From assembly GCA_022710975.1 (NCBI GenBank), contig JAKLGA010000003.1, positions 372,001 through 436,000 on the forward strand: a stretch of DNA of 64,000 nt, read 5' to 3'. A program made the position numbers and the translations under genes. The notes under the pieces are model-generated. The model saw only the letters and a program-made list of their open reading frames with translations. It did not search any database and had not been told where the DNA came from. Position 1 is the first letter of the stretch, and every line of letters begins with the position of its first letter. The DNA is from Myxococcota bacterium (GTDB lineage Bacteria; Myxococcota; B64-G9). Below are positions 8,550 to 40,594 of the stretch, one piece after another.

Positions 8550-9198
8550 GGGCGAGCTCTACCGCGCGCTGGTCGCGGCGGCCGCCCGGGCCGACGCCCC
8601 GGACCACCCCTGGCGGGCGCCCTGGAGCGCGGCCGAGGCGGCCTTCGTGGCGCGGCACCTGGCGCTCCCGCGCGTGCTCCTGGCGGGCGCGGGGCTGGGC
8701 CGGGGGCTCGACGAGCTCCGGGCGCTGGGCGCCGAGGTGGTCGCGCTCGATCGCGCCCCGGACATGACCCGCACCCTCGCGGCCCGCTGCCCCTGGCTGC
8801 GGGTGGAGACGGCCGGGCTGGCGGCGGCCGGCGAGGTGTTCGGCCCGGCCCGCTTCGACAGCGCCCTGGCCCTGGGCCTGGTCAGCGCCGGGCTGTTCCT
8901 GCCCGGGGAGGATCCGGCGGCGGCGTTCGCCGGCCTGGCCGCGGCGCTGCGCCCGGGCGGCGTGCTGCTGGTGGATGCGCTGCTGGGTCCCGAGCCGCGC
9001 GCGGTGCTGCTCCGGCGCGGCCCGGTGGGGCTCGGGCCCGGCCGCCGGGCAGAGGGGTGCGCTGCCTGGCCCGGCCGGGAGCTGCTGGTGGACGCCCTGG
9101 TCGCGGCCGGGTTCAGCGTCCGCCTCGAGCCCCTGAGGCACGATCCGGACACGCCGCTGTGGGGGCTCGCCTGCCGGCTCGACCGTCAGGAGGCTTGA
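8539..9198 (+). CDS. Class I SAM-dependent methyltransferase-like protein
   Basis: This 219-residue protein has a Rossmann methyltransferase layout: a glycine-rich SAM-binding motif I 'VLLAGAGLGRGLDEL' (about residues 45-59), an acidic residue after the second strand (VVALDRAP), and the late 'LRPGGVLLVDAL' strand typical of motif III. The substrate is unknown. The GTG start overlaps the upstream DUF3795 gene by 11 bases, implying coupled translation and perhaps shared function. Its stop codon overlaps the -35 of the next promoter. Confidence 0.75.
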   Translation: MTAEGELYRALVAAAARADAPDHPWRAPWSAAEAAFVARHLALPRVLLAGAGLGRGLDELRALGAEVVALDRAPDMTRTLAARCPWLRVETAGLAAAGEVFGPARFDSALALGLVSAGLFLPGEDPAAAFAGLAAALRPGGVLLVDALLGPEPRAVLLRRGPVGLGPGRRAEGCAAWPGRELLVDALVAAGFSVRLEPLRHDPDTPLWGLACRLDRQEA

Positions 9199-9224
9199 AC
9201 CCGGGGCGCCGGCGCTGGTAGCTT
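9195..9224 (+). promoter_or_regulatory. Putative sigma-70-type promoter of the AP-rich exported protein gene
   Basis: TTGAAC (9195-9200), 18-base spacer, TAGCTT (9219-9224). The -35 overlaps the stop codon of the methyltransferase gene. About 42 bases separate the -10 from the ATG at 9267. Confidence 0.55.
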
Positions 9225-9266
9225 GGCGGGGAGTCTTCGAACCAGGTCGTTCATCGGGAGGAGCGC

Positions 9267-10094
9267 ATGCGCACGGTCATCGTCCTCGTCGTGGGGCTCG
9301 GCGCGGTGGCCGGGCTCGCCGGGCAGGCCGCGGCCCAGTGCACCCAGGACCCGGATTGCGCGGCGGGGCTGGTCTGCCGTGAAGGCAAGTGCGTGGAGGC
9401 CGCGCCCGCAGCGGCGCCCGCGCCCGTGGTCGAGCCCGCGCCCGTGGCGGCCCCCGCGCCCGCGGCGGCCCCCGCGCCCGCGGCGGCCCCCGCGCCCGCC
9501 CCGGTCCAGCCGGCGCCCCCGCCGGCCGTGGGGCCGCGCCCCTCCATGGGCTGGCCGATCGCCTCCGCGGTCATGGCCTTCGCCTTCACCGGCGTGGTGG
9601 TGGGGCTGGGGGTCACCTCGGGCCTGGCCACCCAGGACCACGACAAGTGGGGCGGCATCGGGCTGGGCGCCGGCGCCCTGGGCACCCTGGCCATCTTCGG
9701 CCCAATCTGCTCCACCGGGCAGAGCTCGGCGCGCAGCGGCACCCCGGTCTGGGGCGCGCTGGGGGCGCGCATCCCGGCCTGGATCCTGTACGGCGTCTCC
9801 ATGATCGAGGGCGTGGCCATGCTGGGCCTGGGCCTGGCGGACGTGGACGTGCCCGAGGAGCTGATCTGGGCCGCCACGGCCTCGGCCGGCGCCAGCCTGA
9901 TCCTGTTCGCGGTGGACGACCTGGTCTCCCTGGGCCAGGCCCAGTCCTGGTACGACGAGCAGCAGAAGGGCCGCGTGGCGCTCGAGCTGGAGGACGGCCC
10001 GGCCCTCGGCTGGGCGCCCGTGGTGGCCCCGATCTACGATCTGCGGGGCGGCGGCGCGACCGGAGCCACGCTCGGCCTGGCGGGCAGCTTCTAG
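9267..10094 (+). CDS. Exported membrane protein with Cys-rich module and Ala-Pro linker
   Basis: The 275-residue product has a signal peptide (residues 1-23, AAAQ), then a short four-Cys module (CTQDPDCAAGLVCREGKC) of the kind common in myxobacterial surface proteins, an Ala/Pro-rich linker of about 45 residues, and a C-terminal half with three or four hydrophobic segments. A strong GGGAGGAG ribosome site precedes the ATG. I do not recognise a catalytic domain. The Ala-Pro linker probably spans the periplasm or cell wall between the Cys module and the membrane part. Its stop overlaps the stop of the convergent radical SAM gene. Confidence 0.7.
   Translation: MRTVIVLVVGLGAVAGLAGQAAAQCTQDPDCAAGLVCREGKCVEAAPAAAPAPVVEPAPVAAPAPAAAPAPAAAPAPAPVQPAPPPAVGPRPSMGWPIASAVMAFAFTGVVVGLGVTSGLATQDHDKWGGIGLGAGALGTLAIFGPICSTGQSSARSGTPVWGALGARIPAWILYGVSMIEGVAMLGLGLADVDVPEELIWAATASAGASLILFAVDDLVSLGQAQSWYDEQQKGRVALELEDGPALGWAPVVAPIYDLRGGGATGATLGLAGSF
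9447..9500 (+). repeat. Tandem 18-bp repeat encoding Ala-Pro linker
   Basis: Three consecutive copies of an 18-base unit (GCGGCCCCCGCGCCCGCG), the last differing at one base, encode AAPAPA units in the exported protein. Such units are prone to copy-number slippage. Confidence 0.85.
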
Positions 10095-10867
10095 GTGAGC
10101 GCGGCCATGCGGCGGGACGTGTCCGGGTAGGGGGTGAGCGTCTCCTCGCGCAGCCGCCCGGGCAACGCGCCGTCGATGGCGCGGAGCCTGGCGTGGAGCG
10201 CCTCGCGCTCCCCGGGCGGGAACAGGCGCGGCTCCAGGCTGAGCGCCTCGAGGTCGAAGGGCACCCCGGCCTGGAGCAACGCCGCGGCCGCGCGGAAGGG
10301 CAGCTCCACGGCCGCGCCATCGCGGCCCGTGATCCGGGCGAAGGCGGCGGGGGTGGCCGCCTTGAGGGACAGCTTCAGGAACAGGCGCGGGCCGTGGGCC
10401 GTGAGCGCCCGCGCCCAGGCCGGGTGCGCGCCGAGCGCGATCCCGTTGGTCTCCACGAACAGCCGGCCCGGCAGGCGCGCGAGCAGATCCGCGACGAGCG
10501 CCAGGGAGAGCTCCGACAGCAGCGGCTCGCCGCCCGAGAGCCGCAGGGCGTCGGGGCTCGCTCCCAGGCGGTTCTCCGCCCGGAGCAGGCGCAGCTTGCG
10601 GGCCAGCTCCAGGTGGGTGAGGAAGCCGGCCCGGGCGGGCTCCTCGCGCTCGGGCCCGGCCCAGCAGTGCGCGCAGGCCAGGTTGCAGCCCGCCAGGTGG
10701 ACGGTGAGCGCGTCACCGCACGCGCCGGCCGCGGCGACCCGGGTCACCCGCCGCGCGCCCGGGCGCTCGACCCGCAGGGAGACCTCGGCCGCGGCGGCCA
10801 GGGCGTCGGGGGATCCGGCGGTCGCGCACACCCGCCCAGCGTGCCAGAGGAGCGGGGCGGGTTGCAA
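10091..10867 (-). CDS. Radical SAM protein (activase/QueE-like size)
   Basis: The 258-residue product has CxxxCxxC at C61, C65 and C68 (CNLACAHCWAG) and the SAM-binding motif 'LSGGEPLL', so it should be a radical SAM enzyme with a single visible cluster site. Its size and the 'FVETNGIAL' segment resemble short radical SAM proteins such as activating enzymes or QueE-like proteins, but no partner is adjacent. The start chosen is a TTG at 10865-10867 with GGAG five bases upstream; a GTG at 10829-10831 is an alternative. It ends in a 4-base convergent overlap with the AP-rich protein gene. Confidence 0.78.
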   Translation of the reverse strand: MQPAPLLWHAGRVCATAGSPDALAAAAEVSLRVERPGARRVTRVAAAGACGDALTVHLAGCNLACAHCWAGPEREEPARAGFLTHLELARKLRLLRAENRLGASPDALRLSGGEPLLSELSLALVADLLARLPGRLFVETNGIALGAHPAWARALTAHGPRLFLKLSLKAATPAAFARITGRDGAAVELPFRAAAALLQAGVPFDLEALSLEPRLFPPGEREALHARLRAIDGALPGRLREETLTPYPDTSRRMAALT

Positions 10868-36098: not shown

Positions 36099-36143
36099 CA
36101 TCCGGGCGATCCATGGCCCCCGGACGGGGGTGGAGGGATGCCC

Positions 36144-36836
36144 ATGCCTTTCTGCTCGACCTGTGGGACCCCGAATCCAGACGGCGCCCGCTTCTGCGCC
36201 AAGTGCGGTACCCCCATGACGGCCAGCGCGCCCCCCGCGCCGGTGGTCCAGCCCCCGCCCGCGCCGCGGCCCGCGCCGGTGGTCCAGCCCGCGCCCGCGC
36301 CGCGGCCCGCGCCGGTGCCCCAGCCCGCGCCGCAGCCGAAGGCCCAGACCGCCAAGCAGGCGCTCGCCCCGGGCCGGGTGCCCGTGCCCACCACCGTGGG
36401 CGAGGGTCCGGATCCCAACGCGCCCAACGCGACGCAGTTCTTCGTGGCCGCCGCGGGCGTGTCCACCAAGTCCATGGTCAAGCGGGTGTTGTTCTTCGTG
36501 CTGGGCGCCATCCTGGTGGGCACGGCCATCTACTGCCTGGTCTACTTCCAGCTCATCAAGAAGGAGGCGCCCCTGCCCGGCGCGGGCGAGAGCGCCGAGC
36601 CGGGCGTCGAGCAGCCGGCCGAACCCGTCCCGCCCCCGGGCGGTGAGCCGGCCCCGGGCGCCGCGCCCGCCCCTGCGCCGGAGGCTGCCCCGGCCCCCGG
36701 ACAGCCGGGTGCGGCCAACCCCGGGGCCGCAGCGCCGGCTCCGGGTGCTGCGGTGCCTGCACCTGGCCCCGCGGCTGCGGTGCCCGCCCCCGCCGCCCCC
36801 GGGGCAGGCAAGCCCGGGACTCCCAAGCCCAAGTGA
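36144..36836 (+). CDS. Zinc-ribbon membrane protein with Pro-rich repeats
   Basis: The 230-residue protein starts with a zinc ribbon (C4-x2-C7 and C18-x2-C21), followed by a Pro/Ala-rich repeat region, a single transmembrane helix (about residues 118-140, 'VLFFVLGAILVGTAIYCLVYF') and a long Pro/Ala/Gly-rich tail. The second ATG (36144) is chosen because the GGAGGG site leaves six bases to it but none to the ATG at 36138. Zinc ribbon plus a single helix suggests an adaptor that links cytoplasmic partners to the membrane. It may head the ABC-F/YhbY operon (55-base gap). Confidence 0.75.
   Translation: MPFCSTCGTPNPDGARFCAKCGTPMTASAPPAPVVQPPPAPRPAPVVQPAPAPRPAPVPQPAPQPKAQTAKQALAPGRVPVPTTVGEGPDPNAPNATQFFVAAAGVSTKSMVKRVLFFVLGAILVGTAIYCLVYFQLIKKEAPLPGAGESAEPGVEQPAEPVPPPGGEPAPGAAPAPAPEAAPAPGQPGAANPGAAAPAPGAAVPAPGPAAAVPAPAAPGAGKPGTPKPK
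36234..36335 (+). repeat. Tandem 36-bp repeat encoding Pro-rich linker
   Basis: Two complete and one partial copy of a 36-base unit (36234-36269, 36270-36305, then a degenerate copy to about 36335) encode a 12-residue Ala/Pro/Val-Gln unit (APVVQPxPAPRP) in the zinc-ribbon protein. Confidence 0.8.
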
Positions 36837-36891
36837 CCCGTCACCGCCTCACGTCCGTCCCGGGTTGAGCCCCGACACACGAGTGACACCC

Positions 36892-38676
36892 ATGGCCCTC
36901 GTCTCCCTGCAGCATGTGAGCCTGTCCCGCGCCGGCGAGCCCCTGCTGACCGACCTGGAGCTCACGGTGGCCCCGGGCGACCGGTGGGTGCTCCTGGGCT
37001 CCGAGCCCCAGGTCGGCGGACTGCTCGACCTGCTCGAGGGCAAGCAGGTGGGCGACGCCGGCGAGGTGAGCCGCGCGACCGGCCTGCGGGTCGGGCGCCT
37101 GCCGCGGGTGCCCGAGGTCGGCGAGCAGGTCACCCTGCGCGAGGCCGCGGCCACCGCGCGCGTGGAGCTGGCCGATCTCCACCGGCGCATCGAGCGCCTG
37201 CGCGAGGAGCTGGAGGCCGGCAACTCGCGGGTCGGGCCCGCGCTGCAGGACCTGCAGGCGCGCTTCGAGCGGGAGGGCGGCGAGGATCTCGAGCGCCGCA
37301 CGGCGAGCGCGCTGGAGGCCGTGGGCTTCGATCCGGCCCGGTTCGAGCTGTCCACGGCGCTGCTGTCGCTCGGCGAGCGCAGCCGCCTGGCGCTCGCCCG
37401 GCTGCTGGTGCAGGCGCCCGACCTGCTGCTGCTGGAGGACCCCACCCGCCACCTGGACATCCCCGGCCGGGAGCGGCTCGAGCGCTACCTGGAGGCCTAC
37501 GAGGGCGGGGTGGTGGTGGCCACCTGCGACCGCGCCTTCTTCGATCGCTTCGCCACCGGCCTGCTCGAGCTCGAGCCCGGGGGCGCGGCCGTCGTCTGCC
37601 AGGGCTCGTCTGCCGCCCACCTCGCGCTACGGGCCGAGCGCGGCGATCCCACCGCCCGGCCGGCGCAGGGCTTCCGCTTCCCGGAGATGGAGCACGCCGC
37701 CAAGGTGCTGCTGACCGCCCGGGGGCTGGCGCTGCGGCCCGGGGGCCAGACGCTGCTCGAGCCGAGCAACTTCCAGATCGCCCGCGGGGACAAGATCGGC
37801 CTGGTGGGCCTGAGCGACAGCGGAGCCAGCGAGCTCCTGGCCGTGCTGGCCGGCAAGAGCACCGCCGACGCGGGCAAGGTCCACCCCGGGTTCCACCTGC
37901 AGGTGGGCTACCTGGGGCCGGAGGGCGCCGGGCAGGCCACGGGACGCACGGTCCTGGCCCAGCTCGGGGCGCTGCGACCGGACCTGGAGCCCGACGAGCT
38001 CCGCGAGCAGGCCGCGCTGTTCCTGTTCCCCGGCGCCGCGGCGGAGCGGCTGGTCGAGGAGCTCAGCGAGACCGAGGCCATGCGCCTGAGCCTGATGCTG
38101 CTGTGCCTCGGGCCGTACAACACGCTCCTGCTGCACGAGCCCACGGCCCGGCTCGATCTGCGCTCGCGCGAGGTGGTCGGCGAGGCCCTGGCCGCCTACC
38201 CGGGCACGCTGGTGGCCTTCAGCCACGACCGCGCCTTCCTCGATCGCGTGGCGACCCGCATCCTGTCCTTCGAGGGGCGCAGCCTGGGCGACGCGCGGGG
38301 GGTGTTCTCGGAGCTGCGCCGGGCCGGCCGCGTGCTGGCGGATCACCCGCCCGCTCCGGACGTGTCCCGGTTGCCGCGCGGGCGGAGGCATCCGGCCGCC
38401 GGTCCGGGCGCGGCGCAGGGCAGCGGCGGACAGGCCGCGGCCCCCGGCCCACGCGGGGCCGACCCGCGCGACCGCCGGGCGGAGCTGGAGCGTCAGGCCG
38501 GCGAGGCGCAGACCCGCATCCAGCAGCTCCTGGAGCGCATGGCCGATCCGGGCATGGCGCTCGACTGGGAGGGGCTGGAGAGGTTGTCCCAGGAGAAGAA
38601 GGCCGTCGAGCGCGAGCGCGAGGCGTGCCTCCTGGAGCTGGCCGGCCTGCCCCCCGCGGCCGGCGGCGAGGAGTGA
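36892..38676 (+). CDS. Degenerate ABC-F-family protein (both Walker A motifs lack Lys)
   Basis: The 594-residue protein has the twin-nucleotide-domain architecture of ABC-F translation factors, but key motifs are altered. The first Walker A reads GSEPQVGG (residues 36-43), with no GKS/T; the second reads GLSDSGAS (306-313), with Ala in place of Lys. Signature motifs are LSLGER and LSETEA instead of LSGGEK. Walker B reads LLLLEDPT (D/E swapped) and LLLHEPT. The first H-loop His is Cys (ATCDRAF) while the second is intact. ATP hydrolysis is thus unlikely; it may be a binding or regulatory pseudoenzyme. A C-terminal coiled coil (about 520-585) is retained. The next gene, YhbY-like, starts 4 bases after its stop. 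Confidence 0.85.
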   Translation: MALVSLQHVSLSRAGEPLLTDLELTVAPGDRWVLLGSEPQVGGLLDLLEGKQVGDAGEVSRATGLRVGRLPRVPEVGEQVTLREAAATARVELADLHRRIERLREELEAGNSRVGPALQDLQARFEREGGEDLERRTASALEAVGFDPARFELSTALLSLGERSRLALARLLVQAPDLLLLEDPTRHLDIPGRERLERYLEAYEGGVVVATCDRAFFDRFATGLLELEPGGAAVVCQGSSAAHLALRAERGDPTARPAQGFRFPEMEHAAKVLLTARGLALRPGGQTLLEPSNFQIARGDKIGLVGLSDSGASELLAVLAGKSTADAGKVHPGFHLQVGYLGPEGAGQATGRTVLAQLGALRPDLEPDELREQAALFLFPGAAAERLVEELSETEAMRLSLMLLCLGPYNTLLLHEPTARLDLRSREVVGEALAAYPGTLVAFSHDRAFLDRVATRILSFEGRSLGDARGVFSELRRAGRVLADHPPAPDVSRLPRGRRHPAAGPGAAQGSGGQAAAPGPRGADPRDRRAELERQAGEAQTRIQQLLERMADPGMALDWEGLERLSQEKKAVEREREACLLELAGLPPAAGGEE

Positions 38677-39038: not shown

Positions 39039-39350
39039 ATGCTGCACGATCTGAAGAAGGCGGCCCTGAACCAGGCCATGAAGCTCATGTCCAGCCCGAC
39101 CTTCACCAAGGTCATGTCCGATCCGCGGGTGATGGGCGCCATCACCAAGGCCTTCGAGCTGCAGGGCAAGGTGCGCGGCGGGGTCGAGGAGTCGCTGCGC
39201 GGGCTCGCCGAGCGGCTCAACCTGGCCACCAAGGACGACGTGTCCGCGCTGAGCGAGAAGCTGGGCGAGGTGGAGACCAGCGTGGATCAGATCGAGGCCC
39301 GCCTGGAGACCGAGCCCGCCGCGAAGAGCCGCAAGAAGAAGGCCGACTGA
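39039..39350 (+). CDS. Small helical, phasin-like protein
   Basis: This 103-residue protein is helical, with a central 'LRGLAERLNLATKDDVSALSEKLGEVE' stretch and a short Lys-rich tail (AKSRKKKAD). The 'LNLATKDDV' segment occurs in phasin-like proteins, which have coiled coils. Its function in this operon is unknown. It lies 4 bases after yhbY. Confidence 0.65.
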   Translation: MLHDLKKAALNQAMKLMSSPTFTKVMSDPRVMGAITKAFELQGKVRGGVEESLRGLAERLNLATKDDVSALSEKLGEVETSVDQIEARLETEPAAKSRKKKAD

Positions 39351-39436: not shown

Positions 39437-40594
39437 TCAGTCTTCCCCATCCCCTGCCCGGCGGATCTTGTCCCCGAACTTCTCGCGGATGGCGTCGAGG
39501 GTGGACTCCAGCCGGTGGTGCTTCTGGCGCACCGGCTGCAGGAACAGATCGCCCTGCACCGGCTGCCCCCTGGGCAGCAGGTCGAAGGCCGCCGCGCCCA
39601 CCAGGCGGATGGGCGCCTCGAGGTCCAGCCGCTCGAGCAGCCCGCGGGCGCCCTCGTACAGCGCGGCCGAGTCGTCCGCCGGGGCCGGGAGCGGCCCGTC
39701 CCGGGTGGCGAGCTGGAAGGTGGCGTACTTGAGCTTCACCCGCACCGCGCGGGCCAGGAGCTCCGCGGCGCGCAGATCACGCGCCACCCGCTCGCAGGCC
39801 GCGCGCAGGTGCTTCTCCACCGGCCCGCGCCCGCGGATGTCGCGCTCCAGGGTGCGCTCCGAGCCCACGCTCTTGCGGTCGTGCGCGGACACCACCGGCC
39901 GGTCGTCCAGCCCCTGGCTGAGCGCGTGGATGTGCTCGCCGAACGCCCCCAGCTCCCGCCGGAGCCGGCCGGGTTCGCAGGCGGCCACGTCCCCGATGGT
40001 CGCCAGCCCCAGGCCCGCGAGCAGCTCCGCCGCCCGCGGCCCCACCCCCCACAGGCGCCGGACCGGCAGCGGGGCGATGAACTCGCGCTCCCGGCCGAAG
40101 GGGACCCAGGTGCAGCCGTTCGGCTTCTCGAGATCCGAGGCCAGCTTGGCCAGGAACTTGTTGCTGGCGATGCCCACCGAGGCGCCGAGCCGGGTCCGCT
40201 CGCGGATGCGGGCCTGGATGGCCCGCGCCATCTGCTCCGGCGGGCCGAACAGCCCCTCGGCCCCGGTCATGTCCAGGAAGGCCTCGTCGAGGCTGAGCGG
40301 CTCGACCCGGGGGCTGAACGCGTCGAGCACCTCCATGAGCTGGGCGCTCGCCTCGCAGTAGGCCTCCATCCGCACGGGCAGCACCACGGCCCGGGGGCAA
40401 TGCCGCACCGCCCGCGACATGGGCATGGCCGAGTGCACCCCGAACGCGCGCGCCTCGTAGGAGCAGGTCGAGACCACGCCGCGGGTGCGCGAGCCGCCCA
40501 CGATGACCGGCTGCCCGCGGAGCTCGGGCCGGTCCCGCTGCTCGATGGCCGCGAAGAACGCGTCCATGTCCACGTGGAGGATGACCCGCTGCAT
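39437..40594 (-). CDS. dinB: DNA polymerase IV (Y-family)
   Basis: This 385-residue protein shows the Pol IV hallmarks: 'HVDMDAFFA' with catalytic D9, steric-gate region, 'SYEARAFGV', and 'SLDEAFLD' with D103 and E104. The C-terminal little-finger domain follows ('LWGVGPRAAELLAGLGLATIGD'), and a likely beta-clamp motif QGDLF occurs near residue 356. Pol IV bypasses lesions and contributes to mutagenesis. No SOS (LexA) box is recognised in the short upstream region. The ATG is four bases or so after an inferred transcript start, with no Shine-Dalgarno. Confidence 0.95.
   Translation of the reverse strand: MQRVILHVDMDAFFAAIEQRDRPELRGQPVIVGGSRTRGVVSTCSYEARAFGVHSAMPMSRAVRHCPRAVVLPVRMEAYCEASAQLMEVLDAFSPRVEPLSLDEAFLDMTGAEGLFGPPEQMARAIQARIRERTRLGASVGIASNKFLAKLASDLEKPNGCTWVPFGREREFIAPLPVRRLWGVGPRAAELLAGLGLATIGDVAACEPGRLRRELGAFGEHIHALSQGLDDRPVVSAHDRKSVGSERTLERDIRGRGPVEKHLRAACERVARDLRAAELLARAVRVKLKYATFQLATRDGPLPAPADDSAALYEGARGLLERLDLEAPIRLVGAAAFDLLPRGQPVQGDLFLQPVRQKHHRLESTLDAIREKFGDKIRRAGDGED

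What the first reader, a model, noticed from the sequence alone, without database searches (positions are those of the whole stretch)
36892..38676. ABC-F protein with both ATP sites destroyed, in an operon with YhbY
Both Walker A motifs lack the essential Lys (GSEPQVGG and GLSDSGAS). The signatures are LSLGER and LSETEA, and one Walker B has swapped acidic residues (LLLLEDPT). The reading frame is full length with a retained C-terminal coiled coil, and the gene sits 4 bases before a YhbY RNA-binding gene. Established knowledge: ABC-F proteins use ATP binding at these sites on the ribosome. Inference: this is a maintained non-hydrolysing pseudo-ABC-F, perhaps a ribosome-assembly factor rather than a resistance protein.
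Basis: partly seen in the sequence, partly recalled or inferred. Interest (0 to 1): 0.7.

Follow-up and report, generated by a model that had tools for sequence, protein, structure and literature searches.

The report
Linker-less, ATP-dead ABC-F relic protein
A bacterial ribosome-helper protein of the ABC-F type has lost the arm that reaches into the ribosome and then, step by step, both of its ATP sites, yet the gene still looks selected, so sister genomes preserve a rare series of stages from working ATPase to ATP-free protein.

Summary
In detail: window 36892-38676 encodes a 594-aa tandem-NBD protein with both Walker A motifs, both Q-loops, signatures and Walker Bs broken. First, the interdomain linker (PtIM, Pfam PF12848), the signature element of ABC-F proteins, is deleted (about 48 residues). 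Second, syntenic orthologues in the same class form a graded series: four have intact ATP sites and linker (G002, G004, G005, G008); one has lost the linker only (G003); two have lost the linker and NBD1's site (G006, G007); the window (G000) has lost the linker and both sites. The linker was lost at least twice, and every ATP-site-degenerate member also lacks it. ATP-motif evolution is about 11-fold faster in G000 than in linker-bearing orthologues; the rest is about 2.3-fold faster. Codon evolution still rejects neutrality, so this is not yet a pseudogene. The degenerate motifs are not conserved across sisters, and yhbY is an inconstant neighbour. The constant neighbour (8 of 8) is an upstream membrane zinc-ribbon gene. 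Most likely a nucleotide-independent scaffold descended from an ABC-F translation factor; slow decay is the main rival. New variant of a known kind.

The parts
36892..38676 (+). Linker-less pseudo-ABC-F gene, 594 aa plus TGA
   Evidence: ORF and translation; Pfam ABC_tran x2 at 67.6 bits; AF2 mean pLDDT 89.5, two NBDs plus C-terminal coil; Foldseek best hits EttA, Uup and other ABC-Fs
36997..37020 (+). NBD1 Walker A remnant GSEPQVGG (residues 36-43), one residue deleted, Lys lost
37105..37107 (+). NBD1 Q-loop Gln replaced by Arg72
37363..37380 (+). NBD1 signature LSLGER
37423..37458 (+). NBD1 Walker B / D-loop LLLLEDPTRHLD (Asp to Glu, Glu to Asp)
37522..37533 (+). NBD1 switch region TCDR (His to Cys212)
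37639..37692 (+). Site of the deleted interdomain linker (PtIM, PF12848); a short loop remains (residues 250-267)
   Evidence: Switch-to-NBD2 distance 53 residues versus 101-103 in orthologues with the linker; no PF12848 match even at E<=1; loop only in the AF2 model versus helices 241-278 and 283-296 in G005
37807..37830 (+). NBD2 Walker A remnant GLSDSGAS (residues 306-313), Lys to Ala
37918..37920 (+). NBD2 Q-loop Gln replaced by Pro343
38062..38079 (+). NBD2 signature remnant LSETEA
38125..38157 (+). NBD2 Walker B LLLHEPTARLD (Asp to His415, Glu416 kept)
38221..38232 (+). NBD2 switch SHDR, kept in the window protein (Arg in G006 and G007)
38464..38646 (+). C-terminal coiled coil with conserved MADPxMALDWEGLE turn (residues 525-585)
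   Evidence: AF2 helices 525-550, 553-557 and 559-585; 16/21 invariant CTD residues kept
36138..36839 (+). Constant upstream partner: zinc ribbon, Pro/Ala-rich stretch, one apparent TM helix
   Evidence: Immediately upstream of the ABC-F in all 7 relatives and here, gaps of 34-62 bp; Zn_Ribbon_1 37.9 bits
38681..39034 (+). yhbY (CRM-domain RNA-binding protein), inconstant neighbour
   Evidence: TIGR00253 90.1 bits, cut-off 78.5; detected in 4 of 9 class genomes, adjacent in 3
39039..39350 (+). Small phasin-like protein, same strand, also downstream in G004, G006 and G007
   Evidence: Pfam Phasin 19.8 bits, below the 28.8 cut-off; synteny

Best explanation
The gene is the syntenic orthologue of an ordinary linker-bearing ABC-F of its bacterial class with intact ATP sites. 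In the lineage leading to it the interdomain linker that reaches toward the P-site tRNA and peptidyl transferase centre was deleted, and the ATP sites then decayed, NBD1's before NBD2's (the order is inferred from the graded states of relatives). What remains is a folded two-NBD body with a C-terminal coiled coil that should neither bind nor hydrolyse ATP in the canonical way (inferred from motifs) and should not act on the tRNA or peptidyl transferase centre as EttA-type proteins do (inferred from the missing linker). It is probably kept as a nucleotide-independent binding or scaffold protein, most likely working with the co-conserved membrane zinc-ribbon protein encoded just upstream. Descent, linker loss, ATP-site loss and long-term purifying selection are shown here; the scaffold role and the partnership are inference.
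For: Orthology by synteny in 7 relatives and by phylogeny. Graded series: PF12848 linker and 30/30 ATP-core residues in G002, G004, G005, G008; linker absent with 28/30 in G003; absent with 18/30 in G006 and G007; absent with 13/30 in G000. rpoB+rpoC place G003 with G005 and G002 (support 100), and trees uniting all linker-less forms are rejected by those data, so linker loss occurred at least twice. Rates relative to rpoBC at ATP motifs: 0.25-0.81 with linker, 1.45 in G003, 2.9-3.4 in G006/G007, 5.85 in G000; elsewhere 2.1-2.5, 4.1, 5.3-6.1, 5.25. Inverted constraint in G000: ATP core 13/30 kept versus 106/151 other NBD invariants (p = 0.006), whereas the outgroup keeps 30/30 versus 72/151. 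Codon model excludes neutrality, omega at most about 0.05. AF2 confident fold. Zinc-ribbon gene adjacent in 8/8 genomes.
Against: Synonymous sites are saturated and omega averages over time before the ATP sites were lost, so recent selection on the G000 branch is not isolated. The rate outside the motifs is also raised about 2.3-fold, as expected of partial decay. The linker-first order rests on G003 (one genome) and on the absence, in 8 genomes, of any ATP-degenerate member that keeps a linker. There is no direct evidence of an interaction with the zinc-ribbon protein, and its Lys-rich tail appears lost in G000.
Confidence: 0.5

Rival explanations
1. Slow gene decay: once the linker was lost the protein became nearly dispensable, redundant with the four other ABC-Fs of the genome, and the gene is drifting toward loss with only weak residual selection for a non-toxic, foldable product.
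For: Rates outside the motifs raised about 2.3-fold; four other ABC-Fs with canonical Walker A in the genome, including EttA; each degenerate genome has its own pattern of motif changes; the arm is also largely lost in G007.
Against: No frameshift or stop in any of the four linker-less genes from four genera at 40-50% identity; omega = 1 strongly rejected; 106/151 non-ATP NBD invariants and 16/21 CTD invariants kept in G000; coding-type GC1/2/3.
Confidence: 0.27
2. Ribosome-assembly pseudo-ABC-F working with YhbY: the protein binds pre-50S particles without ATP and is co-expressed with YhbY for that purpose.
For: yhbY starts 4 bp downstream and is adjacent in G004 and G006 too; YhbY is a ribosome-assembly family by NCBIfam name.
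Against: yhbY not detected in G002, G003, G007 or G008, which have the ABC-F, and unlinked in G005; G004 has yhbY beside an intact ABC-F; the tRNA/PTC-reaching linker is gone.
Confidence: 0.15
3. The protein still binds a nucleotide at a non-canonical site and uses it structurally, as degenerate sites of some ABC exporters do.
For: NBD2 keeps the Walker B Glu416 and the switch His445; G006 and G007 keep NBD2 Walker A Lys.
Against: Both Walker A Lys, both Q-loop Gln and glycines of both signatures are altered in G000.
Confidence: 0.08

Closest known systems
Bacterial ABC-F translation factors of the 'ribosomal protection-like ABC-F family' model (NCBIfam NF000355), which the intact orthologues G004 and G005 match above cut-off
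   Same: Same gene by synteny and phylogeny; tandem NBDs without transmembrane domain; C-terminal coiled coil
   Different: Window protein scores 198.8 against a cut-off of 380 while the orthologues score 439-442; no PF12848 linker; both ATP sites broken
Uup (E. coli ABC-F with C-terminal coiled coil)
   Same: Best NCBIfam score and best solved-structure sequence hit; NBD-NBD-coil layout
   Different: 202.6 bits against a cut-off of 900; not sister to Uup in the tree; linker and ATP sites missing
EttA (energy-dependent translational throttle)
   Same: Closest solved fold by Foldseek
   Different: EttA has the linker/PtIM and needs ATP; this genome has a separate true EttA at G000:C29 (909.7 bits, cut-off 599)
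ABC exporters with one degenerate nucleotide site (reviewed in PMC7756269)
   Same: Natural loss of consensus ATP-site residues in an ABC protein
   Different: Those keep one working site and are membrane transporters (own knowledge); here both sites are lost in a soluble protein

Membership tests
ABC-F | Two ABC nucleotide-binding domains in tandem, no transmembrane domain | tested here: met
   ABC_tran in two stretches; AF2 model
[quoted passage not shown]
   No match at E<=1 in the window protein, G003, G006 or G007; 60-85 bits in four orthologues and two outgroups; AF2 contrast
ABC-F | Consensus Walker A and B in both domains | tested here: not met
   13 of 30 core ATP residues kept
ABC-F | Common descent with ABC-F proteins | tested here: met
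   Synteny and trees
ABC-F | ATP-dependent binding in the ribosomal E site | not testable with these tools
   Needs biochemistry or cryo-EM
Ribosomal protection-like ABC-F (NF000355) | Score above the curated cut-off of 380 bits | tested here: not met
   198.8 bits; intact orthologues 439.3 and 442.5
Uup | Score above the curated cut-off of 900 bits | tested here: not met
   202.6 bits
YhbY-linked ribosome-assembly operon | yhbY consistently linked to the gene | tested here: not met
   Adjacent in 3 of 8 genomes carrying the ABC-F; yhbY detected in 4 of 9

The most novel reading that the evidence does not exclude
In one bacterial class an ABC-F translation factor has been converted, at least twice, into a linker-less protein and in one branch onward into an ATP-independent ABC scaffold serving a membrane-anchored zinc-ribbon partner: a two-NBD ABC protein whose selected function needs neither nucleotide nor the ribosomal linker.
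Probability: 0.33. Interest if true: 0.68.

Novelty: new variant of a known kind. Interest (0 to 1): 0.5.

Why it matters
ABC-F proteins are understood as ATP-gated ribosome factors whose linker does the work. Searches of the open literature available here found no account of a natural ABC-F lacking both ATP sites, though linker and arm deletions are mentioned as variations (PMC6723617). The class holds living intermediates (intact; linker gone; linker plus one site gone; linker plus both sites gone) at one syntenic locus, so the order of loss and what the leftover fold is good for can be tested directly. It also points to a previously unremarked constant partner, the zinc-ribbon/TM protein.

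Tried and rejected
Chance or pseudogene artefact: rejected by synteny, codon-position composition and omega tests. Frame alone as evidence: rejected, since overlapping frames are also open at this G+C. A conserved pseudo-ABC-F: rejected, since sister genera are intact. A single origin of all linker-less forms: rejected by rpoBC data (alternative trees, AU p about 1e-4 to 2e-4); the ABC-F alignment alone does not exclude it (AU p 0.13-0.16), and with distant outgroups the gene tree put G003 with the degenerate trio at only 56%, probably long-branch attraction. Mobile resistance gene: best plasmid matches are 34-36% identical Streptomyces ABC-Fs, and the locus is syntenic, so no support. The genome-contig scan returned only general ABC-Fs, because the conserved-motif patterns favour intact members; it served as outgroups and did not name the organism. 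No sigma-70-like promoter found, uninformative at this G+C. A first Walker B comparison for NBD2 was mis-indexed and was redone. A first rpoB/rpoC extraction picked antisense frames and was redone.

Full report
WHAT IS THERE. The ORF 36892-38676 (+) encodes 594 aa. Pfam sees two ABC domains (67.6 bits); the best solved-structure and NCBIfam relatives are ABC-F proteins, but every curated ABC-F cut-off is missed (Uup 202.6 of 900, EttA 199.6 of 599, ribosomal protection-like ABC-F 198.8 of 380). AlphaFold2 gives a confident model (mean pLDDT 89.5, pTM 0.77) of two NBDs and a C-terminal helical hairpin; Foldseek's best PDB matches are EttA, Uup and other ABC-Fs. 13 of 30 core ATP residues survive.

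[quoted passage not shown] PMC11282234). It is absent here: 53 residues separate the NBD1 switch from NBD2, against 101-103 in linker-bearing orthologues; PF12848 gives no match even at E<=1; the model has essentially a loop at 250-271, whereas the G005 orthologue has helices at 241-278 and 283-296.

ORTHOLOGUES. The class to which the genome belongs holds nine genomes, each from a different genus; eight carry the gene, and the ninth is 70% complete and also lacks detectable rpoB and rpoC. Orthology is supported by the same zinc-ribbon gene directly upstream in all (gaps 34-62 bp). Four (G002, G004, G005, G008) have PF12848 and all 30 ATP residues; G003 lacks the linker but keeps 28; G006 and G007 lack the linker, NBD1's site and the NBD2 switch His (18 kept); the window's G000 keeps 13. 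ABC_tran scores fall in step: 177-181, 160, 125-132, 67.6 bits.

ORDER AND NUMBER OF LOSSES. An rpoB+rpoC tree groups G003 with G005 (100) and then G002 (100), and G006 with G007 (98-99); the position of G000 is unresolved. With the near outgroup the ABC-F tree agrees: G003 with G005 at 83, G006+G007 at 99, G000 beside them at 59; with distant outgroups G000+(G006,G007) gets 98. Trees that unite all linker-less proteins are rejected by the rpoBC data (AU p about 1e-4 to 2e-4), so under vertical descent the linker was lost at least twice. No ATP-degenerate member keeps the linker and one linker-less member keeps its sites, so linker first, ATP second is the simplest order. It rests on eight genomes.

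SELECTION. Branch lengths scaled by rpoBC: at ATP motifs 0.25-0.81 (linker-bearing), 1.45 (G003), 2.9-3.4 (G006, G007), 5.85 (G000); outside motifs 2.1-2.5, 4.1, 5.3-6.1 and 5.25. So ATP constraint vanished (about 11-fold), while the rest relaxed about 2.3-fold. In G000 the usual pattern is inverted: other NBD invariants are kept better (106/151) than ATP residues (13/30; p = 0.006), the opposite of the outgroup (72/151 versus 30/30). Codon likelihoods for the degenerate trio peak near omega 0.02 and exclude 1 by about 211 log units. Synonymous sites are saturated (fourfold-site differences 0.53-0.75), so only the upper bound is informative and the recent past is not isolated. Codon-position G+C is that of a living gene. 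I read this as a maintained but relaxed protein.

NEIGHBOURS. yhbY is 4 bp downstream, but it is found in 4 of 9 genomes and adjacent in 3, once next to an intact ABC-F (G004). The constant neighbour is the upstream gene: zinc ribbon, Pro/Ala-rich stretch, a conserved TQFF[MV]AAA[GQ]V segment followed by an apparent TM helix (from sequence), and usually a Lys-rich tail that appears absent in G000. The genome has four other ABC-Fs with canonical Walker A, one a clear EttA.

MECHANISM. Shown: descent, linker loss, ATP-site loss, purifying selection over the long term. Inferred: no ATP cycle and no EttA-like action at the P site; retention as a nucleotide-independent scaffold, most likely with the zinc-ribbon protein (0.5). 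Rivals: slow decay (0.27), YhbY-linked assembly factor (0.15), residual non-canonical nucleotide use (0.08).

LITERATURE. Arm and linker deletions are mentioned as ABC-F variations (PMC6723617). Searches for ABC-F with degenerate Walker motifs or pseudoenzymes found nothing relevant in the open library; subscription journals are mostly not covered. Verdict: new variant of a known kind, interest 0.5.

Noticed in passing
window 36138-36836 (+); L031-L037: A zinc-ribbon, Pro/Ala-rich, single-TM protein is next to the ABC-F in every genome of the class that carries it; its Lys-rich C-tail, present in most relatives, appears lost in the window genome.
   Followed up: partly
L033 (G007) 8970-10616: This orthologue has also lost most of the NBD1 arm helices, a further step not seen in the window protein.
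   Followed up: partly
window 39039-39350 (+): Small phasin-like protein conserved downstream of the ABC-F in G004, G006 and G007 even where yhbY is missing (G007).
   Followed up: no
window 39437-40594 (-): Y-family DNA polymerase (DinB-like; IMS, IMS_C) convergent with the operon; synteny kept in G004 and G006.
   Followed up: partly
G000:C12:369500-373800 (L144); C24:242500-246500 (L145): Other ABC-F paralogues of the genome, with canonical Walker A, that fall below the NCBIfam cut-offs for Uup/EttA and for the ribosomal-protection-like model respectively, so of unassigned subfamily.
   Followed up: no
G002, G003, G007, G008 genomes: No YhbY detected with TIGR00253 in four largely complete genomes of the class; possible loss of this widespread factor, or divergence or assembly gaps.
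   Followed up: no
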